NCBI RefSeq assembly: GCF_037078405.1
Contig: NZ_JAYMGZ010000006.1
Location: 1 to 64,000 of the forward strand
Direction of reading: 5' to 3'
Source: Haloarcula sp. DT43
GTDB lineage: Archaea; Halobacteriota; Halobacteria; Halobacteriales; Haloarculaceae
DNA: 64,000 bases
Shown here piece after piece: positions 2,352-21,030 of this stretch (its first letter is position 1; each line of letters opens with the position of its first letter). The translations under genes and the position numbers were made by a program. Below the pieces are notes generated by a model. That model was not told the origin of the DNA and made no database searches. It worked only from the letters and a program-made list of their open reading frames with translations.

Positions 2352-4595
2352 TCAGTCATCGGACGATATCTTCATATCACGTTCTTGCTTGATTTGAGTG
2401 GCAATATTATTACATTTGTCAGCAAGTATGACCCGTAACGCGCTTCCAATCGATTCCCCTGCTACGGGTGGGACTGCGTTTCCAATCTGTCGGAACCAGC
2501 TGGTGAACGACCCGAGGAAGATATAGTCATCTGGGAACGACTGTAATCTCGCAGCCTCTCGCGGAGTGATTCCTCGGTTTCGCCTTGGATCGTCACGTTC
2601 TGGGTCTGGACAAGCGTGTTCGTAGTAGTCTGGGAGCACGAACCCGTTCGCATCTTTTGCGAGGTGAGCGACTATTGTGGGGGAAGGTTTCGACCATTCG
2701 AGCTTCCGGTATTTGTCTCGAAAACGAGGGTTATCGGCTGTTCCAACGTCATACTCGATATACTCAGCATACTCACCATCGGAATCATACTTGACATCCC
2801 ATCCAGTATCGCCAGGCTGTAGGCCTTCTTCGAACAGGATTCTATCTTTTTCCATGGGGTGTTCCCGCGCCCGGTGGTTGAAGCAGAGCTCGGTTCCCTC
2901 ATGTAGTCCGTTCTGTTTCACGTACTGGCTTTTGGGCCCTCGTCCAGTTTCTGTCATCACCCGTCCGCCCTCCCCACGACGTAAGCGAGGAAGTCCAGAC
3001 AATCCTTGTTTGATATTACGTTCGCAATCAGCTCCGCTGAGATTATCCAACAGGTCCCCAACCTCGTTTTCGCTTACTACGATGTCATTCCGAATCCCGA
3101 CGAGTAGAACACGTTCCCGTTTCTGCGGGATTCCGAGCTCAGTCATGTCCTGCAGACGGAATCCAACTTGATACCCTTCTCCGCTCTCACCGAGAGCTTC
3201 CAAGTCCTCAATTATCCAGTCGATGACGCGTACATCTGTATCACCGACTTTGTTGACCATCCCCTCCACGTTCTCCATCACAATGGCCTTCGGCCGGAGC
3301 TCATCGACGGCTTCGACGTACTTTGTGTACAGACTGGTCCGGTCGTCATCAAGTACGCTGTATTCATCGTCTTTCGCTCGACGGGACCGGTAGCCTGCCT
3401 GTGAGAGTGATTGGCAAGGTGGTCCACCTACAATGATATCAGGGTCAGGCGCGACTTCCTGGATTTCCGCAGACATGTCGATTTCTCTCACGTCGCCACA
3501 GACCACGTTCTGATGGGGGATCTCAGGATGGTTTAGACGGTAGGTCGCAACTGCATCGGGTTCGATATCGATTGCCCAGCGGACATCATACCCCGCTTGA
3601 GAGAGACCATGCGACAGCCCCCCTGCTCCGGCGAACAAATCAACCACAGCAGGTCCTTCACGCTCTTTTCGCTGTTGCTTAAGTCGATACGTCAACAGGA
3701 ATTTCCGAATTTCACAGTCTTCACGGCAGGTATCGCCATCCGCATTGACAGCATGGGTTGCGAGCGCACGGTACAGAATTGGAACATGGCGGTCAATCAA
3801 CTCCTCTTCTAGGTCCGTGTGGCGCCCGGTTGATTCTACTGAAGAAGCGGGATCAAGCAAACCGAGGGAAACCAGTAGCTCGTCAATCTGTGGGTCTGCG
3901 GGCCACACAGGTTTGTCAAATGCGACTTGGAGGAGCCACCAAGCGTCCTGCTCCTCAATTCCCGGAATGGTTCGTAAAAATGTAATGTAAGTAGAATACT
4001 GGACTCGTGAGAAATCACAGAGCGTAGTGCCCTCTGTATAGTGTGTCTCGCTAACGGCTTCAAGTAGTGACTGCAAGCAATCTATTCGTTCCGCGCTTAC
4101 CCCCTTTCGAGGGCTTGCAGCACGGACTGCCTCGTGCAGATCTTCTCGACCCAGAGCTTCGATATTTTCCCAGCTTTCATGGTCTCTGCGGAGGTTTGCC
4201 ACTGTCTTTCTTGGAATCTGGTCGAAGAATCTTTTTGCAGGAGATTCAGTCTGTTTTCCAAGGACTACAGCAGCAACGGTATCAAGTGGGTCATCGCTTT
4301 TAATGAGTGGATCGCCACATGGACACTCCCCTCCGAGATCGCTGCTCTCCCTCTGAATAGCGTGGTACCGACATCCGTCCACACTTTTTGACTGGTTTCG
4401 AGCTATATTCTCAGGGGTAGCACGCGGACAGCCAGCAGGGGGCTGCTGATGACGCCGAATATGTTCTGCAGTGAGCGTGTCTATGAGGAAATCAATATTA
4501 TCCAGAAGTAACTGTCTATGCAATGTCCGTTCAGATTCTGGAGCAGAGCGCACCTGCTCAAATGAAGAACCGCAAGAGGCGGCCGGTCCAGACAT
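2352..4595 (-). CDS. C5-cytosine DNA methyltransferase with N-terminal HhH-GPD glycosylase-like domain
   Basis: A 747-residue fusion. The C-terminal part (from about residue 315) is a complete m5C methyltransferase: DLFAGAGG SAM motif near 320, catalytic Cys394 in GGPPCQS, ENVEGM, PQKRERV and the closing GNAVPP motif. Residues about 101-304 match the endonuclease III/HhH-GPD fold: DPLDTVAAVVLGKQT, the hairpin IPGIEEQDAW (210-219), then PADPQIDELLVSLGLL with the expected catalytic Asp at 234. The Lys that follows the hairpin in bifunctional glycosylases (GRKTA) is replaced by EEQDA. Start at 4595 is preferred because a TTTAAAT box lies about 26 nt upstream, suggesting a leaderless mRNA; ATG 4637 and GTG 4658 are alternatives. 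Expected to methylate host DNA as part of the island; what the glycosylase-like domain does is unknown. Confidence 0.85.
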   Translation of the reverse strand: MSGPAASCGSSFEQVRSAPESERTLHRQLLLDNIDFLIDTLTAEHIRRHQQPPAGCPRATPENIARNQSKSVDGCRYHAIQRESSDLGGECPCGDPLIKSDDPLDTVAAVVLGKQTESPAKRFFDQIPRKTVANLRRDHESWENIEALGREDLHEAVRAASPRKGVSAERIDCLQSLLEAVSETHYTEGTTLCDFSRVQYSTYITFLRTIPGIEEQDAWWLLQVAFDKPVWPADPQIDELLVSLGLLDPASSVESTGRHTDLEEELIDRHVPILYRALATHAVNADGDTCREDCEIRKFLLTYRLKQQRKEREGPAVVDLFAGAGGLSHGLSQAGYDVRWAIDIEPDAVATYRLNHPEIPHQNVVCGDVREIDMSAEIQEVAPDPDIIVGGPPCQSLSQAGYRSRRAKDDEYSVLDDDRTSLYTKYVEAVDELRPKAIVMENVEGMVNKVGDTDVRVIDWIIEDLEALGESGEGYQVGFRLQDMTELGIPQKRERVLLVGIRNDIVVSENEVGDLLDNLSGADCERNIKQGLSGLPRLRRGEGGRVMTETGRGPKSQYVKQNGLHEGTELCFNHRAREHPMEKDRILFEEGLQPGDTGWDVKYDSDGEYAEYIEYDVGTADNPRFRDKYRKLEWSKPSPTIVAHLAKDANGFVLPDYYEHACPDPERDDPRRNRGITPREAARLQSFPDDYIFLGSFTSWFRQIGNAVPPVAGESIGSALRVILADKCNNIATQIKQERDMKISSDD

Positions 4596-5371: not shown

Positions 5372-5544
5372 GATGCAAGTCTCCACTATTATGCAATAAA
5401 CGTGATCGTAATCGGCAATCTCGGAATTAGCTAGATCTGACTTCGGAGCTGACCGAATCCAAGGATCGATTCGCGCTGTGTATTCACCACGACCTAAATA
5501 AACTGTTACAACTCGAGGGTCTCAACGAAGTCAAAAAACAGAAC

Positions 5545-6486
5545 TTAGTCTAATAGAGATACCGTTGTCGCAGCCTCTGAGTTGCGCAGAAATCTCACAA
5601 GGTCTACGAACCCCTCCACGGGTGGTCCTTCAAGGAGGACGCCAGTCTCAAGATAGTGCTCAAACCCGTAGTCCGTCACATTGGCACTCCCCACGTATGC
5701 TGATCTCTCATCGAATAACATAATTTTGGCATGCAGAGTAAACTCAGGAGTGGCCCCATCTTGCCGACGCTGTGCTGACGGTGTCTCGGCATTCCAGCGG
5801 GTATAGTCTACGCAGGTAAGAAGCGAAAGGTCAATACCACGCTCGTCAGCCCGTTTTGCAAACGACTTCAGCACTGAGTAATTGTACGACTCTGTGTCAG
5901 TGAGATACCGAGAAATTATGCGGACCTCCACGTCCCGGTCCATGGCCGCAAATAGCACTTCTTCGAGATGAGCGAATCCATCTTTTTCGAAGAATGGTGC
6001 GACCAGAGTAATTGAGGATTCACTTCTTTTGACCTGCCGTGTGAGGGTCGGCATCAACCATGCCATTCCGAACGATGTCGGGCTCACGTCCTCGAAGGCA
6101 GGGTCAGAAGGAAACGTCACCAGCGGTGTTGCCTCTGTCGCTGGCGGTTGACGTGCCTCGTATGCATTGACGCTACGCGAAGCATGTCGGGCTCTCTCGA
6201 ACACTCCCCGGCACTCTTCTACGTTGACCCGGTAGGCGCTATCTTCAACGCTCGTTCTGAACGACTCACGAGTGATTGCGTCAGTCTGTGAGAGCTGTCG
6301 AAACACGTCAGTGGATGCTGCAACAGAGACATCGGTTTCGCTTGCAATTTGCTCGGGAGTCACCAGTTCATCACGTCCACCGGACAGAACTAACAGGCCC
6401 TCGAGCTGGGAGAGGAGCTGCTCATCCCGATCAACGTACTCCGCTACAGCGAGGGGCATCCACGTCGATTCAGATTCGTCGTTCAT
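5545..6486 (-). CDS. drmC: DISARM protein DrmC, phospholipase D-like
   Basis: Codes for 313 aa with a C-terminal PLD-family catalytic motif: H252 and K254 in LHAKIMLFDE followed by GSAN at 266-269. A second, weaker half of the fold lies around SSITLVAPFFEKDG. The N-terminal 110 residues look like a winged helix (TPEQIASETDVS...). DrmC is the PLD-like member of DISARM; its biochemical role is not settled and it is reported as dispensable in some systems. The gene follows drmB by 45 bases on the same strand, which fixes the identification by context. Longer than many DrmC proteins because of the added winged-helix-like head. Confidence 0.85.
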   Translation of the reverse strand: MNDESESTWMPLAVAEYVDRDEQLLSQLEGLLVLSGGRDELVTPEQIASETDVSVAASTDVFRQLSQTDAITRESFRTSVEDSAYRVNVEECRGVFERARHASRSVNAYEARQPPATEATPLVTFPSDPAFEDVSPTSFGMAWLMPTLTRQVKRSESSITLVAPFFEKDGFAHLEEVLFAAMDRDVEVRIISRYLTDTESYNYSVLKSFAKRADERGIDLSLLTCVDYTRWNAETPSAQRRQDGATPEFTLHAKIMLFDERSAYVGSANVTDYGFEHYLETGVLLEGPPVEGFVDLVRFLRNSEAATTVSLLD

Positions 6487-6531: not shown

Positions 6532-8490
6532 TTACAGTGTCCAGTATCCCGCGATGTCCATGTCAGTGTTCGGCCGACTGCCGAAGAGGAAGTCCCGGGA
6601 CAGAACCTGGTTGAAGTACGAACAGCTGATCTCACTCACGTGCAGGCAGGAGAGACACGCTCCGCCACGCTGTGAGCAGACCGGGTCGTACACACACTCG
6701 TTTCCGTGAATCTCTGCCTGACCGAGGAGGTTATCCAGTTGCTGTTCGACCATCGTGTGCATCCCGCCAATATTGAACTCCTCCCGGTTGTTCGCGTAGA
6801 TGACGACAGAGAGCGCGCGCGGGAAGAGGAACTCACTGAGGTTCGTACGGTCGAACCCACTGATAGTGCTGGCCTGCTTTAGCAGGATATGACTCAGCGT
6901 GTGGACTAGCTGGAACACGTGTTCTGTGACCTGTTCCTCGACCGACTCGTCGAGATCCGTCTGGAACTTGCCATACCGTTCGACCGGCGCGAGGTGATTA
7001 AGCAGAAATGCCCACTGCTCTTCGGTGGAGAGTGACTCGATCTCGCTCCGGGCGTGTTCGAGCGCGGCGTCATCGCGGCTGTTGATCTCCGGGAGCACGA
7101 TATCTCCGTTTACGGCGTCCGGATCACTCGTCCCCGGAATGTTGAGCGCGACCCACAACAGGACCTGTGCGGGGTCGAGGTCGAACTGAACCGCCTCCGT
7201 TTCAGACGTATCGACGAATATTGGCGTTCCGTCCCCGTCACTCGCGCTCTGTGAGAACGCGTTGATCTGTGCTTCCCCTTCTTCACGACTACCACGAGTG
7301 TACCCGTACACGAACGTCTGCACGGGGAAGTCTTCGATGACGCGAACGTCATCGAATCCGAGGGCCTCCAGGTCGTCGTGGTAGCTGTTGATGCGGTCTG
7401 CTTTGTCGGTGAAGCCACGGTCTCGAGCGTTCGTCTCGAGTTCGCCTAGTGTATCCGTCGTGAGCGACTCGCGGCTGAGAACGTACTGGAGAACCTCGTC
7501 ACCGGCTTCGGTGAGCTCAGAGGTCTCTCCGTCTGCATCCAGCGCGAGTGTCTCGTCGAGGCGCTCGAGGATGGTCTTGCTCTCCAGCGACCCTTGCTCG
7601 CGTAGATACTCACGCGCCTCGTCGAGCGTATTTATATCGTCGTGCGTTGTGTAGATTTCCACCACCTTCTCGTCGTCTACCTCCACCTCACCAGTTCGCT
7701 GATGCAGGCTAACGTCTTGGAGTGACGCCGCATCGGACAGTCCGAACAGCTTTGCGATTGCTCTTTTCGCGCCGTCCTCAGAGTTCCGGAGATGCCCGAT
7801 GCCTGCGGTGTGCAGGTTCACCGTTGAGAGATAATGTGGGTAGAAGACACTCCCGGCCCGATGGACTGTCGTGTACATTCCATCGTTTTCCTCTGCTTCG
7901 GGAGCACTGTACTCACAGTTGCAGTTCTGATAGTTCCGCATGGGCGTATCCCACCCGCAGTTACCGACTTCACAGCTCCAGTGGAAGTTCCGAACACGCT
8001 GACTGTTGCGGCGGTTGAGTATGACGTGCTGGTCTCCGTGGTTTGGGCACTTTTGTGGGTAGAGACGGCGAATCTCTCCGCAGGTGTGAACGCTTACAAA
8101 CTGGTACTGTTCGAGGTTGCCGTCACAACCGGATCGGTCACAGGTGAGATCCGGATTGTTGTTCTTGACTTCGTCCGCGGTGTAGTACCCGTGTGCCTTG
8201 TCGCACTTCTGGCACTCGTAGGTAGTGGGGAAGGGCTCGGCCCGAACAGCCTCTGGCACGCCGAAGTGGTAGTGGTCGGTATTGTTCGAGACGAAACCGT
8301 TCTGTCCCCCATCCCAGTTTCGGACGCGTGCGAGGACGCGACCGAGTATGTAGTCCTTGCTGACGGTACCACTCGCGTCGTTCGTTTCGAGCCGCGTGGT
8401 CTTCCAGATGCCGCGCTGCCCGCTGTAGTCGAACGTGTTCTCGGGCAGGAACTGGTAGAGTACCTGCGACTTGCTACGTTCCATTGACAT
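6532..8490 (-). CDS. drmB: DISARM protein DrmB, DUF1998 domain
   Basis: A 652-residue protein. The C-terminal third carries the DUF1998 cysteine cluster (CVYDPVC, GGACLSCLHV, ISCSYFNQVLSR). Near residues 95-165 there are further probable zinc ligands (CQKC, CDRSGCDGN, CGEIRRLYPQKCPNHG). DrmB works with the helicase DrmA as the DNA-binding core of DISARM that recognises and blocks incoming DNA. The start at 8490 lies just downstream of the drmA stop codon (TAA at 8495-8493), with only a couple of bases between them, so the two genes are almost certainly co-transcribed and translationally linked; the earlier in-frame start at 8535 would sit inside drmA. Confidence 0.9.
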   Translation of the reverse strand: MSMERSKSQVLYQFLPENTFDYSGQRGIWKTTRLETNDASGTVSKDYILGRVLARVRNWDGGQNGFVSNNTDHYHFGVPEAVRAEPFPTTYECQKCDKAHGYYTADEVKNNNPDLTCDRSGCDGNLEQYQFVSVHTCGEIRRLYPQKCPNHGDQHVILNRRNSQRVRNFHWSCEVGNCGWDTPMRNYQNCNCEYSAPEAEENDGMYTTVHRAGSVFYPHYLSTVNLHTAGIGHLRNSEDGAKRAIAKLFGLSDAASLQDVSLHQRTGEVEVDDEKVVEIYTTHDDINTLDEAREYLREQGSLESKTILERLDETLALDADGETSELTEAGDEVLQYVLSRESLTTDTLGELETNARDRGFTDKADRINSYHDDLEALGFDDVRVIEDFPVQTFVYGYTRGSREEGEAQINAFSQSASDGDGTPIFVDTSETEAVQFDLDPAQVLLWVALNIPGTSDPDAVNGDIVLPEINSRDDAALEHARSEIESLSTEEQWAFLLNHLAPVERYGKFQTDLDESVEEQVTEHVFQLVHTLSHILLKQASTISGFDRTNLSEFLFPRALSVVIYANNREEFNIGGMHTMVEQQLDNLLGQAEIHGNECVYDPVCSQRGGACLSCLHVSEISCSYFNQVLSRDFLFGSRPNTDMDIAGYWTL

Positions 8491-8492
8491 AG

Positions 8493-11400
8493 TTATCGGT
8501 TGCTGTAGCTGCTGAGGATGTCCTTGTACTTCCACTCGGGATCGATTGGAAGCTGTTCGTCAACGTCACGGAGACTCCGCATCGGAGACCCCGGGAGGCG
8601 TTCGCTCGTCCATTGCCGGTCACTCAGCTGCACCTCGGAAATCGCACTGCGGGTGAGCTGGCTGACATCGTCACTGAACTCCGGTGGGACCTCCGAACCA
8701 CCGTACATGTCCACGAGAATGTTCTCGAGGTCAGCGTCATCGACCGTCGAGAGGAAGTCCTCGGCACGGTCACCGAAGTACATCTGTTCCCCGTCGTCGG
8801 TGTACATGTAGTGGTTGAGCAGAAGCGCCATGAACAGACCTGGCTGCGTCCGCTTGACGCTGTTCTTCGCCCACCGGTTCACTGAGACGGGTTCGACGAG
8901 TCGGTCGAGGAACTGGTGGTACTTCTCGAAGAAGTGGTAGTGACTCAGGTCGCGTTCCCGGATGGGGTGGAGGATGTTGAACACAAGCCCAGGGTGTGAT
9001 CGACCCGCCCGGGAACTGGACTGGATGTACTCAGCAGTGGCACGTGGCATCCCAAAGAACACCATCATGTTGAACCGTTCCACGTCCACCCCGTGACTGA
9101 TCATACTGGTGGCGGTCACCGTGTTGGGCCGGTAGGCAAGTAGCCAGGCGAGGCCCTCCCGAACTTCGGGGGAGGCGGCTCGGAGGGCGACCCGGAACTC
9201 CGTCCGTGGAGTTCTCTCATCGTCGAGTTCTCCCGCGAGGACATCACGCAGTTCCATGATGTCCGGGATGACCGCCTCGTCGACCAGGTCATCGTCGGCG
9301 AGGCTCTGCAGAAGAGACTTGTCCTCGTCCTCCTGCCATGGGTCGTCGAGCTGGTCCAGAATGGTCTGGACCTCCTCGAAGGGCGTCCCACCCGTCATGC
9401 GCTCTGAATTGAGCGGCGGGCGACCCTCCCCACGGAAGTATGCGTTCAGCTGGCTGACGAACGACTGGTCTAGCCGGTCTCCATCCTTCTTCGACAGCAG
9501 GTACGTCAGGCTCGTGCTGTAGAGCGTGAGGATGTCGATAATCTCAGCGATGGAGTCAGCCGACAGGGCCTCACTGGTGTCCGTCCCCTCGAGTTCGACG
9601 CCAGTGAGTAGGTCTTCGGGCGACTCCATCGCCATCAGGAGGAGATCCTGGACCTCCTCGTGGAAGGTGAAGAGCACATCGATGATGGAGTTGATGTGCG
9701 TCTTGCCGTGTGGGATGAGTCCCATGTAGTAGCGCTGTGTATCGGGCTGTTCCATCGCGTAGAAGTTCTCGCGCAGGAAGGGACCTGGCGACGGGAAGCG
9801 CTCTGCAGGACGGAGGAACAGATGGTACACTTGGTCCTCATAGGCCGTGATCGTCGCTGTCGGTGCGAGTATCTTCGTCTTCCCAGCATCGACAATCTCC
9901 TGAAGCGTCTGGACTCCGGTCTCGTAGTGGCCGTCGAAGCTCCCGACGCTCTCCTCGAGGAGGTGGAGCTCGTCTGGAACCATCAGCGATGGAGCCGGGT
10001 CGTACACCTCTATCGGCGACGCCATCATCTCGAACTCGTCTTTGTCGATATCACAGCCGTACTTCTCCGTGCACTCACCGAGGCTGGCGAAGCCGTGCGT
10101 CGGGCACTCGTACTCCATCTCCCCGGTCAGGATGTGTGCCATCTTCCGCTGGTACCCGACTGCAGTGATTTTGTCGATGGTTCCTGCCAGAATGCTCGGT
10201 ACGTAGCGGTAGAGCTCGTTATCGACGACGTGAATCGGGAGCTCGTCTTCCGCGTACACCTCTTGGGCTGCGGTCTCGCGCTTCTGCCAGTCACACTCGA
10301 AGGGGTTCCCAGTACAGACGTGAGCGAGGCGTATATCCTCCGTCACTCGCATCTCGACCCGTGAACCACAGGCTGGACAGCTCGGAACGACCTTCGCCTC
10401 CTCTCTGAGCTCCTTGTCTTGCTTGTAGCGCGTGAAGTTGTCGTTGTTGTAGCCCGTGAGCGCGTTCGGTGTGTTCTTCTTGCCGACGAGGAAGCCGACA
10501 CTGAACGGCCGGGATGGACGACTGCCGATGTCGTCCTGGTCACGGCGGACGAGGTCGGCGTACATGATCGTCTCCGACATCCGCTGAAGCTGCTGAAGCG
10601 ACAGGAGCCGGAGTGGGAATCGCGTCCACGTGGTCACCCCGAAGTGCTTGCCGCGGATACGGTCGAAGAACATGTTCCAGACGGCGACACCGAAGAACGC
10701 CTCGGACTTGCCGCCGCCAGTGGGAAACCAGAGCACGTCGACGACATCGAGGGCACCATCGGCCTCCTCGAAGCGCTCTGAGAGCTCCTCTTCGCCACGC
10801 CAGCTGATTTCATCCCACTCCTCGTACTCGCGGCCAGCGATATCGGGAACGAGCATGACGATGAACACGAGCTGGAATAGTCGCCATGTGTCGAAATCGT
10901 GCATCCGGTCCATGGACTCGTTCATCAGTTCGAACGCTCGCCCGACCGTGTCCGGATGTTCACGGAGCACGCGGATGCCACGTCGGAACCGGACGATTTC
11001 GCGCTCGAACGCGGCCTTGTCCTCTTCGAAGTCCTCGCGGTCGGCATCTGACCAGTCGCCGCGCTTGCTGTACTCCCGGAGGGCCTCCGGGTACGCGGTT
11101 TCGAGGTACTCGTCCATGGCGTCCGCGACCGACTCCAGTACCTCATAGCCGCCGCCGTGAAGGTCAGCGAGTTCGCTAAATGCAGGGTTCACTTCCCGGT
11201 CAGCGGACTCATAGACCCGCTGGCGGTACTGGGGGATGAAGTCCGTTTGGACGTGGTCGGTGTGCGGGTCTGCCCGAGGCGCGGATCGCCCAGGCGTGGC
11301 ATCACCGAGCGTTTCCTCATAGTCCGGCGCAGTTATCGTGCAGTTCCGGCCGTGCCCCCAGAGGTCACGGTTGTAGCGGAAGTCCTCGGGAAGTGGGTCG

Positions 11401-12293
11401 AACGTGAAGGGGGTAAACTCCACGTCGCCGTTCGCCTGGAGGTCAAGCTGAACCTCGAACAGCGTTGGATCGCGGAGCGTGTAGATGTAGTCCCGTTTCG
11501 GCTGTGTGCCCGTGTTTGTGACCTCGATGTCGAGCAGGAGTTCGTTCCCGTTGCTCTCCCGGTCCTCGGTGGTGGTGATCTGTACCGACAGGTCCCAGTC
11601 CGGTATCGCTGGTGTCCCATCTCGTTCCTCGAGGTAGTCGTCGAACGCGCTCTCGCTTTCGAGAACGTAGCTCGGGACATCCTCGTCCGGCTTGTCGTCT
11701 CCGTTATCGAGGTAGATGTCGTCGCGTGCTACAGCCCGTTCACGAGCATCTTCTACAGCCGTTCGAACCGCTTCGGCGGTGCGCTCCTGCACGACCTCCG
11801 GGGTTGTCCGGGTCCCACCCGCAATAGCCTCGTAGGGAACCTCGATCGACGGCACCTCCAGTTCGAGCCGGTCAAAGACCGGAAGGAGCGTTGTATTCTC
11901 CGTATCGTCGTCATCGCGGTCTGCCAGCGAGACGTACTCCTCGCGCCGGTCCATCTCCTCGTAGGTCGGGTTCACACGCACCCACACGCTCCCCGTGATG
12001 TCGAGAGAGATTGTATCTCCCGCAGACCCGTTTCGGATGCGGGTCATGGTGCCGATGGCGCTGGGCTCCATTTTCGACTGGAGGTCGTCATCACTGTCTT
12101 CGAGGTCGCTGTTCGCCTCCGGGGCCAGTGCCCCGGCGAAGAACTTGTCACTCGGGGCGTCGCGCTTGACCCGCGCGTTCTCCCCCTCGAGATTGCCGCT
12201 CACCCGATCAGTGATGCGCTTCCTGAGGTGTCGTGCGATGCGTTCCTCGTCGTCCGGAGGTCCGTCGTCCGAGTCAGGCTGGGACCCTGTCAT
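8493..12293 (-). CDS. drmA: DISARM helicase DrmA
   Basis: A 1266-residue SF2 helicase. Walker A is FPTGGGKS at 523-530, with the unusual Gly-rich loop typical of DUF1998-associated helicases. The DEXH box reads DELHLL, motif III is APTATI, and C-terminal motifs V and VI are visible as SHGVDVERFN and QSSSRAGRSHPG. An inserted zinc-finger-like element (CPACGS...CTGNPFEC) follows the first helicase lobe. The long acidic N-terminus is family-typical. DrmA is the ATPase core of DISARM together with DrmB. A TTTAAG TATA-like box at 12324-12330 and a perfect inverted repeat at 12337-12384 lie immediately upstream, so the short leader and probable regulation can be read directly. Confidence 0.92.
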   Translation of the reverse strand: MTGSQPDSDDGPPDDEERIARHLRKRITDRVSGNLEGENARVKRDAPSDKFFAGALAPEANSDLEDSDDDLQSKMEPSAIGTMTRIRNGSAGDTISLDITGSVWVRVNPTYEEMDRREEYVSLADRDDDDTENTTLLPVFDRLELEVPSIEVPYEAIAGGTRTTPEVVQERTAEAVRTAVEDARERAVARDDIYLDNGDDKPDEDVPSYVLESESAFDDYLEERDGTPAIPDWDLSVQITTTEDRESNGNELLLDIEVTNTGTQPKRDYIYTLRDPTLFEVQLDLQANGDVEFTPFTFDPLPEDFRYNRDLWGHGRNCTITAPDYEETLGDATPGRSAPRADPHTDHVQTDFIPQYRQRVYESADREVNPAFSELADLHGGGYEVLESVADAMDEYLETAYPEALREYSKRGDWSDADREDFEEDKAAFEREIVRFRRGIRVLREHPDTVGRAFELMNESMDRMHDFDTWRLFQLVFIVMLVPDIAGREYEEWDEISWRGEEELSERFEEADGALDVVDVLWFPTGGGKSEAFFGVAVWNMFFDRIRGKHFGVTTWTRFPLRLLSLQQLQRMSETIMYADLVRRDQDDIGSRPSRPFSVGFLVGKKNTPNALTGYNNDNFTRYKQDKELREEAKVVPSCPACGSRVEMRVTEDIRLAHVCTGNPFECDWQKRETAAQEVYAEDELPIHVVDNELYRYVPSILAGTIDKITAVGYQRKMAHILTGEMEYECPTHGFASLGECTEKYGCDIDKDEFEMMASPIEVYDPAPSLMVPDELHLLEESVGSFDGHYETGVQTLQEIVDAGKTKILAPTATITAYEDQVYHLFLRPAERFPSPGPFLRENFYAMEQPDTQRYYMGLIPHGKTHINSIIDVLFTFHEEVQDLLLMAMESPEDLLTGVELEGTDTSEALSADSIAEIIDILTLYSTSLTYLLSKKDGDRLDQSFVSQLNAYFRGEGRPPLNSERMTGGTPFEEVQTILDQLDDPWQEDEDKSLLQSLADDDLVDEAVIPDIMELRDVLAGELDDERTPRTEFRVALRAASPEVREGLAWLLAYRPNTVTATSMISHGVDVERFNMMVFFGMPRATAEYIQSSSRAGRSHPGLVFNILHPIRERDLSHYHFFEKYHQFLDRLVEPVSVNRWAKNSVKRTQPGLFMALLLNHYMYTDDGEQMYFGDRAEDFLSTVDDADLENILVDMYGGSEVPPEFSDDVSQLTRSAISEVQLSDRQWTSERLPGSPMRSLRDVDEQLPIDPEWKYKDILSSYSNR

Positions 12294-12384: not shown

Positions 12385-12425
12385 ATTTTAGCGCCGTGCG
12401 CGTGCGAGCAGCGCATGCGCGTCCC

Positions 12426-12445
12426 GCGTGTGCGCTCGCACACGC
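12426..12445. repeat. GC-rich palindrome upstream of drmMI
   Basis: GCGTGTGCG, two bases, then CGCACACGC: a perfect 9-bp inverted repeat inside an alternating purine-pyrimidine CG-rich patch (about 12394-12448) that contrasts with the AT-rich DNA around it. It may form a hairpin in the 5' leader of drmMI, act as a second operator, or stop leftward transcription. Confidence 0.45.
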
Positions 12446-12560
12446 GCAACCCCTTGATAGAAATCATCAGACAGCCCTCTTCATCAAGTGTTATGTATCA
12501 GAAGTTCCCTGTCTGTATATCAACAGGAGGCGTCCCCTTGGCGCTTCCAATTCAACACAC

Positions 12561-15500
12561 ATGTCTCAGCAATCTCACCCCTACCGCACGAATCGGGACC
12601 TCTTTTCTAACCATTATCTCAATGAGCATCTTCGGCAGACGGAGCCCTGGGAAGAAGTCGACCAGGACGAGATTCGTGATACTTATCAGGAGATTCGAGA
12701 GCTCTGGGAGGACAAGAAGCACAGAGTCGAGGACTACAACGAGTCCTCACTTGAGGATAACTTTATTCGCCCGATGTTCGACCTTCTCGGTATTCCGTTC
12801 GAAGTCGAGCAAACGGTACAACGCAACGCTCGGCGTCCGGACTACGGTTTTTTCCCGAGCAGCGACGCAGGCGATGCGGCATATGACCGTGATGACTTCT
12901 ACGAGGAGGCAATAGCTGTCGCTGACGCAAAGCGATGGGGCCGGAAGCTCGACACCCGTGGCAAAGAGAAACGTGACTTCGAGAACCCGAGCTATCAGAT
13001 CCACCGATATCTCCAGGAGACGCCACCTCAGTGGGCGGTCCTAACGAACGGTGAGAAGTGGCGGCTCTACTACGGACCGACGAGTCACCGACTGGACTCC
13101 TTCTATGAGATTGATCTCCCTGAACTCCTCGACATCGTGGACGAGGAGAATGACTTTGAAGCATTCAAGGAGTTCTACCTGTTCTTCCGTCAGGAAGCGT
13201 TCCTCCCCGACAAGACGGGTGACTGCTTCCTCGACGACATTTACGACGAGAGTAATACCTTCGCCGAGGCGCTTGGGGAGGACCTCCAAGAGAACATCTA
13301 CGAGGCGATTCGCGTGCTCGCAGAGGGATTCCTCGATACGAACGATGACCTCAACGAAGAGACACTGGTTGAGGATCTTGAATTCCTTGACAAATCGTCC
13401 GATTTCGAACAGGCACGACTCGATCTCATCCACGACAGTTCACTCATCTATCTCTACCGGCTCATCTTCGTTCTCTACGCCGAAAGTGAGGGACGAAATC
13501 TCCTCCCGACAGACAACGAGATCTACAGCGGGAGTTATAGTATAAACGAGCTGAAACAGGAAGTGGTTGAGAATCGGGACGCGACCCAGCAGCACTATCA
13601 GACGTGGCAGACTGAACTCTGGGATCAGCTCGACGAACTGTTCGTCCTCATCGACCAGGGAAGCCAGGGACAGGGCATTCCGAAGAAAGATCTCTACATC
13701 CCGGCGTACAACGGTGGTCTATTCCGAACGAGCCCAGATGAGGACGACAGCGTCGAGTCGCAGTTCCTCTCGAACTACGAAGTCGGCGACGCGTATATCG
13801 CTGAGGTCATTGAATTACTCACTCGCCACGAAGCCGACAAAGGCAAAGGAAAGGTGTTCGTCGACTACTCCTCGCTGGACGAGCGGAACCTCGGTTCGAT
13901 TTACGAGGGCCTGCTGGAGTACAAACTTGACGTGGCCGACGAGCCATTGACCGTCGACGATGGTAAATATACTCCTGCCGAGGAAGACGATGACATCGCG
14001 GTCAAGACTGGAGATGTGTATCTCCGCACTGACGACGGGGAACGCAAGGCCACAGGGTCCTACTATACGCCCGAGTACGTCGTCGAGTACATCGTTGACG
14101 AGACGCTCGGACCACTGGTCGATGAGATACAGGAGGACCTCATGTCCCAGAGTGCGGACACGACTCATAGCCGGGAAGGCGGGTTCGCTGACGAGTTCGC
14201 TGAGCAAATCTTCGACCTCACTGTGTTGGATCCCGCGATGGGAAGTGGACATTTTCCGGTCAACGCAGTGGACTATCTCGCTAGGAAGATCATTGATGCC
14301 CAAGAAAAGCAGGACCGACAGGCGATGGACGCTGCAGACGCGGAGGTTCGAGCACCGACAACCGAGGACGGAGAACTACGCGACATCAATTGGGCGCGCC
14401 GAAAGGTCGCTCAGCGGTGTATTTACGGCGTAGACGTTAATCCGCTAGCGACAGAGCTGGCAAAGGTTTCTCTTTGGCTGCGGACGCTCGCTGCGGAGCA
14501 GCCGCTCGCGTTCCTTGACCACCACCTCAAAACAGGAAACTCGCTCGTCGGGAGTGACATCGAAGACGTACTGTCCGACGGCGACGACGAGATTACGGAG
14601 GATGGCCAGCTAACCCTCCAGCAGTCGTTCGACCACACTCGCCAACGTGCAATGGAGCACGTCACTGATCGCTTCCAAGACCTGCTCAACATCGACAATG
14701 AAACACTGGAAGACGCAAAGGAGATGGAAGCAGTTTACGAAGATGTACGTGATGACCCTCTGTACCGGAAGCTATTGGCGATGGCTAACGTCCACACCGC
14801 CGACGCTTTCGGGCTTGATGTACCCGATGACGCCGACGAGCGCATGGCCCGTGCTCTTCACAGTGAGGCGTGGGAGAATATCGAGGAACAGGACTGGTTC
14901 AAGTCGGCTCAGGCAATGGCCGATGATGAGCGCTTCTTCCACTGGGAGCTGGAGTTCCCGATGGCATTCTACGATCAAGACGGGAAGCGGAAGACTGATG
15001 CTGGATTTGACGCGGTAATCGGGAATCCGCCGTACGTAAAGATTCAGAATCTTCGCGGTAGTCAACCAGAGTTTGCTGAATTTCTTGATGAACAATATAT
15101 GACCTCTACTGGACGATTCGATATTTACGCGGCATTTGTCGAGATGGGCAGCCAATTGGCTGCTGGAAAGAATCTTTCGTATATTCTCCCCAACAAGTTC
15201 TTCGAATCCAGCGCAGGAGAAGGCCTTAGAGAATACATCACAAGTAACGGACTATTAGAGAAAATCCTTGACTTCGGCCGTCACCAAGTGTTCGAGGGGG
15301 CGACGACGTACACATGTATTCTGATGCTCGGAGCAGGTGAAAAATTCGAGTATGGCCAAATCAATCAATCTTCCAGAGAGATTCAGAATCTCAATGAGGT
15401 GCAGTTCACTACAATAGACTCTGATGAACTTGGTGATGAGCCATGGATACTCACAGGGCCGAGAGAGCGGGAACTACTGAACCGGATTGAAGAATCTGGA

Positions 15501-16886
15501 ACACCGCTCGGTCAGTACACCGAGTATATTTCGGAAGGAATCGTGTCCGGAGATAACCAGGTACTCTTTGTAGAGATTCTTGATAATGGAGAGGAGATAA
15601 CAGAAGTCAGAACACAGATAGACGAGAAAGTCCGTGAGCTTGAATCAGAAATCGTTCACCCTCTCTCAATGGGTGACGAAATTAATCGGTATGCCAAGCC
15701 GGACGCAAGTATGGGTGTAATCTATGCGTACGAGGAAACCAACTCAGGGACCGACCTAATCCCAGAGCAGCGGCTGGAATCGGACTATCCTAAGGTGTAT
15801 GACTATCTTAGTGAGTATCGTTCTCGACTCGAAGATAGGGGAAGCAAGTCAATGAACTATCCTTCATGGTACTCCCTATGGTGCCCACGCGAGAAAGAGC
15901 TGTTCGAATCGAAAAAACTTCTCACACCCGATATCTGTCAGCATCCGAAATTCACGGAAGATAGACAAGGAAGAAATTATTTCGCAGACACGACTTACGG
16001 ACTGGTACTTAATAAGAACTCAAAATCGCAGAGGAAATTCTTCCTATCGGTACTGAACAGTAGCCTCACCTGGTTCTATATATATCATACGAGTCCCGTT
16101 CTCCGAGGAGATTTCCGCCGGTTCAAAACAACATATCTCGAAACCCTACCGATCATTCAAAAACGACCATCTGGGAATATTAAAAGCCTCTCAGAGGCGT
16201 GGGGTCAGAATGGATTCGAAAATAAAGCTAGAAACTCTCCTATTGACGCGCTTGTTTTCCTAGGAGAAAAGATGGGGGAGCTTCACGACTCTCGCAATAC
16301 ACTCAATCTCAATCTCTTCGAGTACCTTGGTAACTACACAAAAGGACCCAATCTCCCCGATATCGGCCTTTTCCAACCCACTGCATCAAATATTCTCGAT
16401 GCCACCACTGAGGAGTACGAGAAACTGCAGATCGAACGCGCCCGTACGAAATGTAACGACTCGACAGTCACCATCGAAGTGACAGCACGTTACAAGCCGG
16501 AAGAAGAGGACGAGTTCGAGACTGATACCTATGGCTACACGGAGACGGAGTTCGTCAAGGCGTTCACGCTCACGAACTTGAGCGAAGAGGAGGAAGCACT
16601 CGTCGAGGCATTCGTTCCCGTCGTCGTTGAGGAGGAGATTGGGGATTTCTCCGACGGGGCTGGGAAGACAATCTCTCTCATGGATCGATTGAAAGATATC
16701 ACCCTACCTGACCCCGATGACGTGGCTGACGATCTCCGGCGCTACATCGAGACAAAAGAACGAGCCGACGAACTTGACGAGAAAATCGAGAAGACCGACC
16801 AGCTCATCGACGAGATTGTTTACGACCTCTACGACCTGACTGATGAGGAAATCGAGATAGTGGAAGAAGCGGTCGCCGACGACTGA
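12561..16886 (+). CDS. drmMI: DISARM adenine-N6 DNA methyltransferase DrmMI
   Basis: A 1441-residue N6-adenine methyltransferase. Motif I is DPAMGSGHF and motif IV is GNPPYVKIQ; the large C-terminal target-recognition half and a final coiled segment follow. The N-terminal 130 residues resemble a PD-(D/E)XK nuclease module: RRPDYGFF with D94, then VADAKRWG with D122 and K124, as in type IIG-like enzymes. DrmMI marks host DNA so that DISARM spares it. ATG 12561 was chosen over the upstream frame extension from 12396, which is a CG-rich non-protein-like leader. It is divergent from drmABC and co-directional with drmD, with an opposed HNH gene in between. A PglX-type BREX methylase was considered; the neighbours favour DISARM. 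Confidence 0.88.
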   Translation: MSQQSHPYRTNRDLFSNHYLNEHLRQTEPWEEVDQDEIRDTYQEIRELWEDKKHRVEDYNESSLEDNFIRPMFDLLGIPFEVEQTVQRNARRPDYGFFPSSDAGDAAYDRDDFYEEAIAVADAKRWGRKLDTRGKEKRDFENPSYQIHRYLQETPPQWAVLTNGEKWRLYYGPTSHRLDSFYEIDLPELLDIVDEENDFEAFKEFYLFFRQEAFLPDKTGDCFLDDIYDESNTFAEALGEDLQENIYEAIRVLAEGFLDTNDDLNEETLVEDLEFLDKSSDFEQARLDLIHDSSLIYLYRLIFVLYAESEGRNLLPTDNEIYSGSYSINELKQEVVENRDATQQHYQTWQTELWDQLDELFVLIDQGSQGQGIPKKDLYIPAYNGGLFRTSPDEDDSVESQFLSNYEVGDAYIAEVIELLTRHEADKGKGKVFVDYSSLDERNLGSIYEGLLEYKLDVADEPLTVDDGKYTPAEEDDDIAVKTGDVYLRTDDGERKATGSYYTPEYVVEYIVDETLGPLVDEIQEDLMSQSADTTHSREGGFADEFAEQIFDLTVLDPAMGSGHFPVNAVDYLARKIIDAQEKQDRQAMDAADAEVRAPTTEDGELRDINWARRKVAQRCIYGVDVNPLATELAKVSLWLRTLAAEQPLAFLDHHLKTGNSLVGSDIEDVLSDGDDEITEDGQLTLQQSFDHTRQRAMEHVTDRFQDLLNIDNETLEDAKEMEAVYEDVRDDPLYRKLLAMANVHTADAFGLDVPDDADERMARALHSEAWENIEEQDWFKSAQAMADDERFFHWELEFPMAFYDQDGKRKTDAGFDAVIGNPPYVKIQNLRGSQPEFAEFLDEQYMTSTGRFDIYAAFVEMGSQLAAGKNLSYILPNKFFESSAGEGLREYITSNGLLEKILDFGRHQVFEGATTYTCILMLGAGEKFEYGQINQSSREIQNLNEVQFTTIDSDELGDEPWILTGPRERELLNRIEESGTPLGQYTEYISEGIVSGDNQVLFVEILDNGEEITEVRTQIDEKVRELESEIVHPLSMGDEINRYAKPDASMGVIYAYEETNSGTDLIPEQRLESDYPKVYDYLSEYRSRLEDRGSKSMNYPSWYSLWCPREKELFESKKLLTPDICQHPKFTEDRQGRNYFADTTYGLVLNKNSKSQRKFFLSVLNSSLTWFYIYHTSPVLRGDFRRFKTTYLETLPIIQKRPSGNIKSLSEAWGQNGFENKARNSPIDALVFLGEKMGELHDSRNTLNLNLFEYLGNYTKGPNLPDIGLFQPTASNILDATTEEYEKLQIERARTKCNDSTVTIEVTARYKPEEEDEFETDTYGYTETEFVKAFTLTNLSEEEEALVEAFVPVVVEEEIGDFSDGAGKTISLMDRLKDITLPDPDDVADDLRRYIETKERADELDEKIEKTDQLIDEIVYDLYDLTDEEIEIVEEAVADD

Positions 16887-16904: not shown

Positions 16905-18029
16905 CTACAACCACGAAAGACCAGCATTTAGCTCCTCAAGGAAACCTGGCCGCACTTGAACTTCGGGCGGGAATACAATCGGTTCGCCCTCTTTTTCGGT
17001 TATTGTCTCACGAAGGAACGGATGTGCAGGCTCGAACGACGGACTCGTCCGTATCCGATACTCACTATCGACTGTGAATAGCGCGGCGTCGAACGCCCGG
17101 TGATGGAGTGAGTTCAGCACAAACACGTTCTCCGGATGCTCAGCGAGCTCTGGTCGCTGGCTCCGAGGTAACACGTGAGCCAGATCAAGCAGAGCCTCTT
17201 CCTGGATGCCAGTCAGAGTACACGCCTGCTCATATCGCTCAAACGTTTCAGTCCTGAACGTGTCGCTCACGGCAACTTCGGTCTGCTCGTAACGTCGAAT
17301 GGTTCCACCGACAGAATCGAGCAATTCGCCGGTCGGCCATTGCTTGATCTCTCCGGACCTCACCCACTGTTTCCAGACTTCGGGTGCGTTCTCAGAACTA
17401 TTCGTCCGTACACGGTCGTGTAGCCAGGAGACCGGGACCGAATGTGTGTTCAGGATCGAGAAGTGGAAGAGGTAGTTCGGAATCTGTGCTCCTGACTCGC
17501 CCTGATATGACCGAATCTCGAGGTGGTCGGGAACGCAGAGTCCACAGAACTCGACGGCGCCAGACTGTGGCTTCCGGAAGACGAGGACCGGTGGGACCTC
17601 CTCACGTCGCCCAGATGCCTTTCTGTCGAATGCTTCCTTGATTTTCTGGTTTTGCTTGGACTCGCCGTAGGGGTTGTCTGCCTTGGCATCGCCCCAGTAG
17701 CTGATGTATCCCGAATTGACAGCCAGTGTGTCTTCCCACGGGTCGTCGTGCTGAGAGACGCCCTTGTCGTTTGAGACGAGTATCAGTGCCGCCGGAGTAT
17801 CACTGCGGTCAGTTCCGAGGTCCCGAATACCGCCCGTGTTTTTGATGCCACTGTTCAGCGACCCTCGAATCCACCGTAGAAACTGGTCTTCTGAGTTCCG
17901 GTAGCTTCCCGTGTCCCGATATTGTTCGCCAACTTTGAACGCCCTATTCATGATTTTCGGGATGTGGGTTGGGGAGCGTTCATTCGAGACAGCGAGTACA
18001 TAATAAGAGACCTGAGTACGCAAAGACAT
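16905..18029 (-). CDS. HNH endonuclease with putative modified-base-reading N-terminal domain
   Basis: Codes for 374 aa. The C-terminus is an HNH_2-type nuclease: C270 in ACTLTG, H285 in LAHVLPRS, N301 in ENVFVLN and H310 in HHRAFDAALF. The first 200 residues (EDQFLRWIRG..., SGYISYWGDAK, PPVLVFRKPQSGAVEFCGLCVP) resemble the SRA-like reading domains of modification-dependent restriction enzymes; this half is judged from a few motifs and is less secure. ATG 18029 is preferred over 18137. It lies only 30 bases from the chosen start of divergent drmD, so both promoters must overlap the neighbouring coding DNA. In this position it could be an added effector that cuts foreign modified DNA. Confidence 0.65.
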   Translation of the reverse strand: MSLRTQVSYYVLAVSNERSPTHIPKIMNRAFKVGEQYRDTGSYRNSEDQFLRWIRGSLNSGIKNTGGIRDLGTDRSDTPAALILVSNDKGVSQHDDPWEDTLAVNSGYISYWGDAKADNPYGESKQNQKIKEAFDRKASGRREEVPPVLVFRKPQSGAVEFCGLCVPDHLEIRSYQGESGAQIPNYLFHFSILNTHSVPVSWLHDRVRTNSSENAPEVWKQWVRSGEIKQWPTGELLDSVGGTIRRYEQTEVAVSDTFRTETFERYEQACTLTGIQEEALLDLAHVLPRSQRPELAEHPENVFVLNSLHHRAFDAALFTVDSEYRIRTSPSFEPAHPFLRETITEKEGEPIVFPPEVQVRPGFLEELNAGLSWL

Positions 18030-18058
18030 TAAACCCGAGAGTCGCATCGGACCCATTA

Positions 18059-21001
18059 GTGACCAATTGCCAGTGCGGATTCGAAGTCGGGGACCGCGTA
18101 AGCTTCGCGGGTGGCGATGGTGAAGTGGCGAAAGCAAACCATCGCCCAGATGGCCAGTGTTTGCTGATGATTCTCACTGATAGCGGACAGACAAAGCGCC
18201 CGAGCGCCGTCGTCGACAAAGTCGAGGGCAGCGACACGTTACTGGCAAACCGCGAATTCGATACACCAGACCATTTCAACCTCCGGTCACGGGCTGCGGA
18301 ACTCGACCTCGCCCACCGTCAGGACCGGTTCGTTACCTTGGAGAGCAGTCGCATCGACATCGCACCACACCAGGTGAAGGCCGCCCATGAGATTCTCACC
18401 TCCTACGACCACCGCTATCTGATCGGCGACGAGGTCGGTCTCGGCAAGACTATCGAGGCCGCCATCGTCATCGAGGAACTCGCCGCTCGTGGGCAGGCTG
18501 ACAGGGTACTGATCGTCGCTCCTGCCCCCCTTGCGACGCAATGGCAGGAGGAACTCCGCGAGAAGTTTGACAGCAACTACGTGGTCTACGACCGCGACTA
18601 CGTCGACGCGAAGCGAGGAGCCCACCCGAATAAAAACGTCTGGACACACGACGACCGCATTATCACCTCTATCGACTTCGCAAAGCAGGAGGATATGCTC
18701 GCGGCACTGGATAATCTAGACGAGGAGTGGGACATCGCCATTTTCGACGAATCGCACCACCTCACAGCGCGCCGTGAGGGGAAGCGTGGAATCGATAGGA
18801 CCGAACGCTATCGGGTTGGCGAGGCGGTTTCACAGAACTCCGATGGACTTCTGTTCCTCACCGGAACGCCCCACAAGGGTAAACGCGATCAGTTCTACTT
18901 CATGATCTCGCTGCTTGCCCCATACCGATTCCGTGACGAGCACGATGTCAGCAAGGAAGGGCTCCGGGGTCTGATGATTCGTCGGCTAAAGAGCGAAATG
19001 TACGAGTCCGACGGCTCCAAAATGTTCCCAGAGAAGAATATCGAGACGCTGCCTGTCAAGTTCACGCCTGCGGAACGAGAACTCTACGAGAGTGTCACGG
19101 AGTACATCACAGAACACTACAATCTCGCTCACAGGGAGGACAACGACACTGCAGGCTTCGCCATGGTTCTCTACCAGAAGCGGCTCGTCTCGTCGATTCA
19201 CGCTATCAGGAAGTCGCTCAAAAACCGGATGAAGTCCATCCAGGCCGGTGGCGCTGACCCGAGTGAACTGTCGCAGCTCACCAAGAGTCTTCTCCCACAG
19301 TATCGGGAAGACCCCGAGATGTTGACCGACGCGCAGCGAGGGAAAGTCGAAGAGGAGCTCGGCGGCGTGGCGGCATCAAGTGACCCGGCGAAGGTCAAAC
19401 AGGAACTGCAAATCGTCAGAGAACTCTACAATCAGGCGAAAGCTATCGATGTCGATTCCAAGGCCGAACAGCTGCGTGAGTTCGTTGATGGCGTACTGGC
19501 CGAAGATCCCGACGAGAAAGTACTCATCTTTACTGAGTACACGGACACGCTGGAATACCTCAGAGACCGGTTGTTCAGCGAGCACGATGTCGCCCAGGTC
19601 TACGGCGATCTCTCACAACCTGAGCGGAGACGCCAACTGAAGAAATTCGAGGATGAGGCCAACATCATGCTTGCGACTGACGCGGCCCGCGAAGGGCTAA
19701 ACCTTCAGTTCGCACATATCATGGTCAATTACGACCTCCCGTGGAACCCGACACGGATCGACCAGCGCATCGGTCGGCTCCACCGCTACGGGCAGGAGCG
19801 AACGGTCGAAATTCGGAACCTGTTCGTGGACGATACGCGGGAGAGCGATATCCTTGAACTCCTGCTGAGCAAGCTTGACGAGATTGAGGAAACGCTGGGC
19901 ATGAGTTCCGATGTCCTCGGGCTCGTACTGGACAATGTCGATCTTGAGGACCAGATTATGACTGCTATCACGCACGAGGACGAGGCAGACTCAATTGCTG
20001 CCGATCTTGACGCGATTGTCGAAGACCAAGAAGAGGCTGTGCGCCGTGTCGACCAAGACCTGCTCATACGTGACCGCTTCGACCTGAGTGAGGAAGACCG
20101 GGAAATCCTCGACATCATTGACGAGAGTGCGGAGGATACGATTAGCGAAGCTGACGTTGAATATCTCGTCCGAACCGTGTGCAACGAATTCGGTGGCCGG
20201 ATTGTCAACGTTCGGCCCGGTCCCGCCGATGACGGTGGTGATGTGTTCGACCTTGTCGTTCCAGACCCGATAGCTGGAGGCGAAGTACAGGACCGATATG
20301 ATAGCGCAACTTTCGACCGGAAGAACGCTGTCGAGAACGAGTCCCTCGAATTCATTGCCCTTGATCACCCGGTCGTACGATCGATGATGCAGTTCTGTCT
20401 CGATAGCGATGCAGTCGGAGGGCAGACGGCAGTCCTGACTGGCGGAAGAGATCTGGCGACACCAGGACTGCTCTGTCACTTCCGGGTTGGATACCTCTCT
20501 GGAACAGGTGACACAGTGACGGAACGGCTCGTCCAGGTCTACGTGACACCTGATGGAGTGGAGAAGACTAGCGATATCAATATCACCGGCGGCCTTCCAC
20601 CTTCCGCTGCCGACGATTATCCCGCCGTTGACGCGGTTTCTGCGCGTTCTGACGAGCTTGTAGACCGGGCAGAGGCTGTCTCATGGGATGTTATCGAAGA
20701 TCTGGCAGCAAAGGCGCGAGAAGATCGACAGCGAGAGGCGCGTATTCGCCGCGAGCACACGCAGAAATACTTCGAATATCGCATCGACGACCTTGAGGAC
20801 CGGATTGAGCGTTTCGAAGAGCGCAACACCCAGCCGGATGAAGACATGCGTGTTGTTCTTGCGAAGGCGCGAAACGAACTCAAGGAATTACGAGAGGAAC
20901 GAGATGCAGAGTTGGCGAAACTCGAAGAGGAAGAACAGGTAATCCCAGACGAGCCGGAGCTCATCAACATGGCCGTTGTTGTCAACGCCTTCGAGGATTA
21001 G
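18059..21001 (+). CDS. drmD: DISARM SNF2-type helicase DrmD
   Basis: About 980 aa with all the motifs of SNF2-family ATPases: Walker A GDEVGLGKT (123-131), motif Ia VAPAPLATQW, DESH box (230-233), LTGTPHKG, and in the second lobe EYTDTLEYL, ATDAAREGLNLQF and DQRIGRLHRYGQ. The N-terminus carries a small beta domain (GDRVSFAGGDGEVAK), and the C-terminus ends in a charged coiled coil (about 900-960). DrmD is the helicase that defines class 1 DISARM. The start is uncertain: GTG 18059 gives the compact domain beginning; TTG 17969 would overlap the HNH gene. It probably belongs with drmMI on the rightward side of the system. Confidence 0.88.
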   Translation: MTNCQCGFEVGDRVSFAGGDGEVAKANHRPDGQCLLMILTDSGQTKRPSAVVDKVEGSDTLLANREFDTPDHFNLRSRAAELDLAHRQDRFVTLESSRIDIAPHQVKAAHEILTSYDHRYLIGDEVGLGKTIEAAIVIEELAARGQADRVLIVAPAPLATQWQEELREKFDSNYVVYDRDYVDAKRGAHPNKNVWTHDDRIITSIDFAKQEDMLAALDNLDEEWDIAIFDESHHLTARREGKRGIDRTERYRVGEAVSQNSDGLLFLTGTPHKGKRDQFYFMISLLAPYRFRDEHDVSKEGLRGLMIRRLKSEMYESDGSKMFPEKNIETLPVKFTPAERELYESVTEYITEHYNLAHREDNDTAGFAMVLYQKRLVSSIHAIRKSLKNRMKSIQAGGADPSELSQLTKSLLPQYREDPEMLTDAQRGKVEEELGGVAASSDPAKVKQELQIVRELYNQAKAIDVDSKAEQLREFVDGVLAEDPDEKVLIFTEYTDTLEYLRDRLFSEHDVAQVYGDLSQPERRRQLKKFEDEANIMLATDAAREGLNLQFAHIMVNYDLPWNPTRIDQRIGRLHRYGQERTVEIRNLFVDDTRESDILELLLSKLDEIEETLGMSSDVLGLVLDNVDLEDQIMTAITHEDEADSIAADLDAIVEDQEEAVRRVDQDLLIRDRFDLSEEDREILDIIDESAEDTISEADVEYLVRTVCNEFGGRIVNVRPGPADDGGDVFDLVVPDPIAGGEVQDRYDSATFDRKNAVENESLEFIALDHPVVRSMMQFCLDSDAVGGQTAVLTGGRDLATPGLLCHFRVGYLSGTGDTVTERLVQVYVTPDGVEKTSDINITGGLPPSAADDYPAVDAVSARSDELVDRAEAVSWDVIEDLAAKAREDRQREARIRREHTQKYFEYRIDDLEDRIERFEERNTQPDEDMRVVLAKARNELKELREERDAELAKLEEEEQVIPDEPELINMAVVVNAFED

Positions 21002-21030
21002 ATAGCGTCTCTGTCTCGATATTCTGTGAG

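What the first reader, a model, noticed from the sequence alone, without database searches (positions are those of the whole stretch)
2352..4595. C5-cytosine methyltransferase fused to an HhH-GPD glycosylase-like domain with a changed active site
The N-terminal region aligns by eye with endonuclease III from the helix before the hairpin to the catalytic Asp, but the hairpin GxGRKTA is IEEQDA, so the bifunctional lysine is lost while the Asp is kept. A domain that could recognise or remove a base, joined to one that methylates cytosine, is unusual. It might excise the product of 5mC deamination (T in T:G) made by its own activity, remove a phage base modification, or only help find DNA. Two Cys near the end of the domain (CREDC) recall the endonuclease III cluster, but only in part.
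Basis: partly seen in the sequence, partly recalled or inferred. Interest (0 to 1): 0.75.

Follow-up and report, generated by a model that had tools for sequence, protein, structure and literature searches.

The report
Antiviral DNA methylase with worn-down repair domain
A salt-loving archaeon carries, next to a DISARM antiviral gene cluster, a cytosine DNA methylase joined to a domain descended from the repair enzyme endonuclease III that has lost most of its catalytic parts; the pairing recurs beside antiviral genes in 23 of 24 related gene copies, so the domain probably helps the methylase handle DNA rather than cutting out bases.

Summary
Window 2352-4595 (-) encodes a 747-aa C5-cytosine methyltransferase (residues ~316-720) whose N-terminal ~310 residues have an HhH-GPD fold of the endonuclease III (EndoIII) type: profile against Nth, hhalign E 5.6e-14; PDB profile hit E 1.4e-5; structure match Z 14.7 over 226 residues.

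I found 24 such fusions, all in haloarchaea; 23 lie beside drmA genes. In 392 sampled genomes, 18 of 19 carriers have DrmA, against 48 overall (p ~ 3e-17). It is a DISARM-associated methylase.

An active glycosylase is not well supported. Asp234 is replaced in 4 of 24 (at least three independent changes), the second hairpin glycine is mostly lost, there is no lysine, the Gln wedge and Asp-Thr-His motif are not conserved, and the iron-sulphur ligand set is gone. Haloarchaeal Nth proteins keep these features. The domain is under purifying selection.

Most likely it is a non-excising DNA-engaging or docking module on a DISARM self-marking methylase. T:G repair or phage-base excision remains possible but unproven. 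I found no published description.

The parts
2352..4595 (-). 747-aa C5-cytosine methyltransferase with an N-terminal HhH-GPD-like domain (called FUS here); start codon ATG at 4595
   Evidence: aligned start codons in homologues, TTTAAA box 30 nt upstream
3696..4307 (-). HhH-GPD (EndoIII-type) core, residues ~97-300
   Evidence: hhalign against Nth E 5.6e-14; PDB profile hit E 1.4e-5; fold Z 14.7
4308..4430 (-). family-specific Cys insertion, residues 56-96 (C56, C75, C91, C93), possible metal site
   Evidence: 24/24, 24/24, 23/24 and 24/24 Cys; low model confidence here
3894..3896 (-). Asp234 codon, equivalent to EndoIII catalytic Asp138
   Evidence: D in 20 of 24 homologues
3945..3965 (-). 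altered hairpin P211-G-I-E-E-Q-D217 in place of P-G-V-G-R-K-T
2436..3650 (-). C5 methyltransferase domain, residues ~316-720, with a conserved target-recognition region (504-670)
   Evidence: PF00145 E 1.5e-59; motif residues GGPPCQ, EN, QxRxR and GNAxPP invariant in the family
5545..6486 (-). drmC (PLD nuclease)
   Evidence: PADLOC DrmC E 1.3e-14; PF13091 E 8e-13
6532..8535 (-). drmB
   Evidence: PADLOC DrmB E 2e-52
8493..12293 (-). drmA helicase
   Evidence: PADLOC DrmA E 1e-151
12396..16886 (+). drmMI-like adenine methyltransferase
   Evidence: PADLOC DrmMI E 3.5e-98
17969..21001 (+). drmD-like SNF2 helicase (also close to BrxHII)
   Evidence: NF038317 408 bits, under its cut-off of 610; PADLOC BrxHII 555 bits
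21031..22377 (-). second C5 methyltransferase (C5MT2), no N-terminal extension, frequent partner of FUS
   Evidence: PF00145 E 1.5e-66; co-occurrence

Best explanation
This is a C5-cytosine methyltransferase belonging to a haloarchaeal DISARM locus. Its N-terminal half is an EndoIII-derived HhH-GPD domain that has been kept as a non-excising module. Shown: the fold, the ancestry, the fusion across haloarchaea, the link to drmA/B/C, the intact methyltransferase motifs and the purifying selection. Inferred: the domain engages DNA, possibly damaged, bent or replication-associated DNA, or docks on a partner such as a DISARM protein. It would thereby load the methyltransferase so that host DNA carries 5mC and escapes DrmAB. 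It does not normally remove a base.
For: HhH-GPD fold and ancestry (NCBIfam MonDNAglycDR2438 matches 20 of 20 members, best E 6.4e-8). Loss of catalytic and DNA-contact signatures: Asp234 in 20 of 24; second hairpin Gly kept in 3 of 24 and the first Gly lost in 3; no Lys or consistent Glu at the Lys120 position; the Gln41-equivalent variable; Asp-Thr-His changed to Asp-Pro-x; no Fe-S ligand set. The Asp changed at least 3-4 times on the tree. Haloarchaeal Nth in the same order keep GxGxKTA, VDTHV and the cysteines, so this is not a halophile effect. Purifying selection on the domain: dN/dS about 0.08-0.15, against about 0.04-0.12 in the methyltransferase core. DISARM link: 18 of 19 carriers have DrmA versus 48 of 392 genomes, p 2.6e-17; 23 of 24 loci have drmA nearby. 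[quoted passage not shown] DrmAB ATPase activity is reduced on 5mC DNA (PMC9142583).
Against: The Asp is intact in all 15 members of the window's own clade, so activity may persist there. The reshaped hairpin is often acidic, which weakens the claim of DNA binding by the usual route and equally allows a protein-docking role. No direct evidence of DNA binding exists. In G154 the fusion stands without drm genes within about 60 kb. Thirty DrmA-positive genomes lack the fusion, and the C5 methyltransferases found at such loci have no such N-terminal domain, so it is not essential to DISARM in general.
Confidence: 0.5

Rival explanations
1. Active monofunctional glycosylase: the N-terminal domain removes T from T:G, or U, produced by deamination at the methylase's own target sites, like MIG or Vsr encoded beside C5 methyltransferases but in one polypeptide.
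For: Asp234 aligns with catalytic Asp138 and is D in 20 of 24 and in all 15 of the window's clade. Lack of Lys fits a monofunctional enzyme. The closest NCBIfam model is a monofunctional glycosylase. A thymine-DNA glycosylase (1kea) and ROS1 are among the structure matches.
Against: Asp lost in several lineages; Gln wedge, GxG hairpin and Thr-His beside the Asp not conserved. The partner C5MT2 carries no such domain. The host has five other HhH-GPD proteins over the Pfam cut-off. The strict DISARM link would not be expected for general T:G repair.
Confidence: 0.17
2. Protein-docking module: the HhH-GPD fold has been repurposed to bind another DISARM protein, with no DNA role.
For: DISARM link. 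Invariant aromatic and basic residues W219, W220, K228, W231 together with a degenerate, often acidic hairpin.
Against: The fusion occurs with two DrmA types about 30% identical to each other, so a specific DrmA contact would have to survive that divergence. It also occurs without drm genes in G154.
Confidence: 0.18
3. Base-excision restriction or anti-modification enzyme: the domain excises an unmethylated or virus-modified base, making the fusion a one-protein restriction glycosylase and methylase.
For: Restriction glycosylases exist (PMC10273834). Sis-HhH-GPD shows that HhH-GPD enzymes can work without the Asp (PMC11754123). The gene sits in a defence locus.
Against: PabI-type restriction glycosylases are, to my knowledge, a different fold. 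Positions 216 and 234 are both variable. DISARM already supplies effectors.
Confidence: 0.06
4. Decaying relic: an accidental fusion with no function.
For: The domain evolves about twice as fast as the methyltransferase core.
Against: Kept in 24 diverse members with invariant residues and dN/dS near 0.1.
Confidence: 0.03

Closest known systems
Endonuclease III family, especially D. radiodurans EndoIII-1 (DR2438) and EndoIII-3
   Same: HhH-GPD fold, helix order, Pro-Gly hairpin position, Asp position
   Different: fused to a methyltransferase; no Lys, GxG hairpin, DTH motif or [4Fe-4S] ligand set; a Cys insertion before the core
DISARM cytosine methyltransferase DrmMII
   Same: C5 methyltransferase beside drmA/B/C; DrmMII profile 222 bits
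   Different: an N-terminal domain of ~310 aa; C5 methyltransferases at fusion-negative haloarchaeal DISARM loci lack it; generic type II C5 methyltransferase models score higher
MIG mismatch glycosylase encoded beside a C5 methyltransferase on plasmid pFV1 (pairing from general knowledge)
   Same: pairs an HhH-GPD protein with a C5 methyltransferase; a thermostable thymine-DNA glycosylase (1kea) is among the structure matches, Z 12.1
   Different: separate genes there; MIG keeps its catalytic signatures
ROS1/DEMETER plant 5mC glycosylases
   Same: HhH-GPD fold linked to 5mC; ROS1 Z 13.2
   Different: ROS1 erases 5mC and is bifunctional with a Lys (general knowledge); here the partner domain writes 5mC

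Membership tests
HhH-GPD / EndoIII superfamily (by descent) | HhH-GPD fold over the whole domain | tested here: met
   Z 14.7 over 226 residues to 4uob; hhalign E 5.6e-14
EndoIII enzyme family | catalytic Asp | tested here: inconclusive
   present in this copy as Asp234; 20 of 24 in the family
EndoIII enzyme family | catalytic Lys (bifunctional) | tested here: not met
   Gln216 here; no Lys at this position in 24 members
EndoIII enzyme family | GxG hairpin (HhH) | tested here: not met
   second Gly replaced by Glu here and kept in only 3 of 24
EndoIII enzyme family | four Cys binding [4Fe-4S] at the C-terminal side | tested here: not met
   only two Cys, 20 and 22 of 24
EndoIII enzyme family | base-excision activity | not testable with these tools
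   needs an assay
C5-cytosine methyltransferase | motifs I, IV (PCQ), VI (ENV), VIII (QxRxR), IX-X | tested here: met
   PF00145 E 1.5e-59; motif residues invariant
DISARM | drmA, drmB, drmC in one locus with a methyltransferase | tested here: met
   PADLOC matches; NCBIfam DrmB, DrmC and DrmD cut-offs not reached
DISARM | antiviral activity | not testable with these tools
   needs infection tests
DrmMII | C5 methyltransferase of the DISARM locus | tested here: inconclusive
   position fits; DrmMII model 222 bits but generic C5 methyltransferase models reach 270 bits

The most novel reading that the evidence does not exclude
A single protein that both writes 5mC as the self mark of an antiviral system and excises a base, either the deaminated product at its own sites or an unmarked or virus-modified base: a writer-editor for DISARM.
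Probability: 0.15. Interest if true: 0.85.

Novelty: new variant of a known kind. Interest (0 to 1): 0.52.

Why it matters
DISARM tells self from non-self partly through methylation, and how its methyltransferases reach and mark host DNA is poorly known. A conserved, DISARM-linked methylase carrying a repurposed repair domain gives a concrete handle on that step. It also shows a repair-enzyme fold reused, apparently without its chemistry, inside an immunity gene. If the domain proves active, it would be the first enzyme I know of that joins 5mC writing with base excision in one chain.

Tried and rejected
Pfam on the N-terminal domain alone: no significant family; one of 20 members matched HhH-GPD, at only E 0.004. 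Single-sequence PDB search: chance match only. Phages and viral contigs: no relative; the viral structure library gave no match at E <= 0.001; one PHROG matched a single member. Asp loss as proof of inactivity: rejected after reading PMC11754123. ARMADA in place of DISARM: considered because the helicase is BrxHII-like (PMC12458937), but DrmB- and DrmC-like genes are present, which fits class 1 DISARM. Literature: no paper on such a fusion among those held; most subscription papers are not held. Target sequence of the methylase: not determined. The full-length model is poor in the C-terminal third and was not used for domain arrangement.

Full report
WHAT IS THERE. The finding's coordinates are right. 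The minus-strand gene at 2352-4595 encodes 747 residues. The longer mechanical ORF starts at 4658 with GTG, but homologous start codons align at the ATG at 4595, and a TTTAAA box lies 30 nt upstream of it, as in leaderless haloarchaeal genes (general knowledge). Residues ~316-720 are a C5-cytosine methyltransferase (PF00145 E 1.5e-59) with invariant motif residues across 20 homologues.

IS THE N-TERMINAL DOMAIN HhH-GPD? Yes, by four routes. (a) A family profile from 20 homologues hits EndoIII-1 of D. radiodurans in the PDB at E 1.4e-5. (b) It hits haloarchaeal Nth-like genes at E down to 3e-11; a single-sequence search reached 1e-6. (c) Profile-profile comparison with an Nth alignment gives E 5.6e-14 over residues 97-295 (the E. 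coli Nth row in that alignment was entered from memory and checked only for length 211, Lys120 and Asp138). (d) The predicted structure (pLDDT 81.6, pTM 0.82) matches EndoIII at Foldseek E 2e-5 and Z 14.7 over 226 residues. All 20 members also match the NCBIfam model of the monofunctional glycosylase DR2438, best E 6.4e-8 but far under its cut-off.

IS IT A GLYCOSYLASE? In 24 homologues, Asp234 (EndoIII Asp138) is D in 20 and G, S, N or A in four. A tree needs four changes, three of them forced by well-supported branches. In the 15-member clade that holds the window protein it is always D. The Lys120 position is never Lys and has no constant substitute. The second hairpin glycine is kept in 3 of 24, and the first is lost in 3. 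The Gln41-equivalent position is variable. The Thr-His after the Asp is replaced. The four Fe-S cysteines are reduced to two, and these are not universal. Nth proteins of related haloarchaea keep the hairpin, VDTHV and the cysteines. What is invariant instead: C56, C75, C93 (C91 in 23 of 24), R129, W142, W219, W220, K228, P229, W231, P232, E263, R269. The domain is under purifying selection, dN/dS about 0.08-0.15. A caution: Sis-HhH-GPD works with Ser at the Asp position, using Glu134, which by spacing falls at the Lys120 position (PMC11754123). [quoted passage not shown]

SURROUNDINGS. The window holds drmC, drmB, drmA, drmMI-like and drmD-like genes plus a second C5 methyltransferase. Of 392 sampled haloarchaeal genomes, 19 carry the fusion, 48 carry DrmA, and 18 of the 19 carry both (p 2.6e-17). 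All loci but one (G154) have drmA close by. The fusion occurs with two DrmA types: one class-1-like with drmD and drmMI, and one divergent (about 30% identity; G374, G259, G172, G191). In three of these four (G374, G259, G172) no separate second C5 methyltransferase was found within the region read. The C5 methyltransferases found at fusion-negative haloarchaeal DISARM loci are mostly 320-409-aa ORFs without the N-terminal domain. Copies lie on plasmids of DL31, Natronobeatus and Halarchaeum, and none was found in phage or viral collections.

INTERPRETATION. DrmAB activity is reduced on 5mC DNA (PMC9142583), so a DISARM C5 methyltransferase marks self DNA. I think the EndoIII-derived domain was kept to engage DNA or a partner and lost its excision chemistry, at least in part of the family. 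This is inference. An active T:G glycosylase in the window's clade is not excluded.

NOVELTY. No description of this fusion was found in the held papers, which exclude most subscription journals. I rate it a new variant of a known kind: a DISARM cytosine methyltransferase with a degenerate glycosylase domain.

Noticed in passing
window 16905-18137 (-): AspBHI-N-like modified-base-recognition domain plus HNH nuclease (PF18062 E 3e-39, PF13391) inside the DISARM locus, recurring in about 10 of 24 loci; a modification-dependent nuclease next to 5mC writers is odd.
   Followed up: partly
window 21031-22377 (-): Second C5 methyltransferase found near the fusion gene in at least 13 of 24 loci; in G154 the pair stands alone without drm genes within about 60 kb.
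   Followed up: partly
window 4961-5386 (-): Small PD-(D/E)XK nuclease (PF11645 E 1.3e-22) between drmC and the fusion gene.
   Followed up: no
window 4308-4430 (-), residues 56-96: Four near-invariant cysteines (C-x18-C-x15-C-x-C) inserted before the HhH-GPD core; possible zinc or other metal site; no family match found.
   Followed up: partly
L145:2975-5116: 714-aa C5 methyltransferase ORF in another haloarchaeal DISARM locus with ~300 residues after the methylase domain that match no Pfam family.
   Followed up: partly
L164 (halophilic archaeon DL31 plasmid), 20085-20420 and 20445-22241: The deposited annotation starts the fusion gene too late and calls an opposite-strand ORF over the N-terminal domain, which may be one reason the domain was overlooked.
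   Followed up: no
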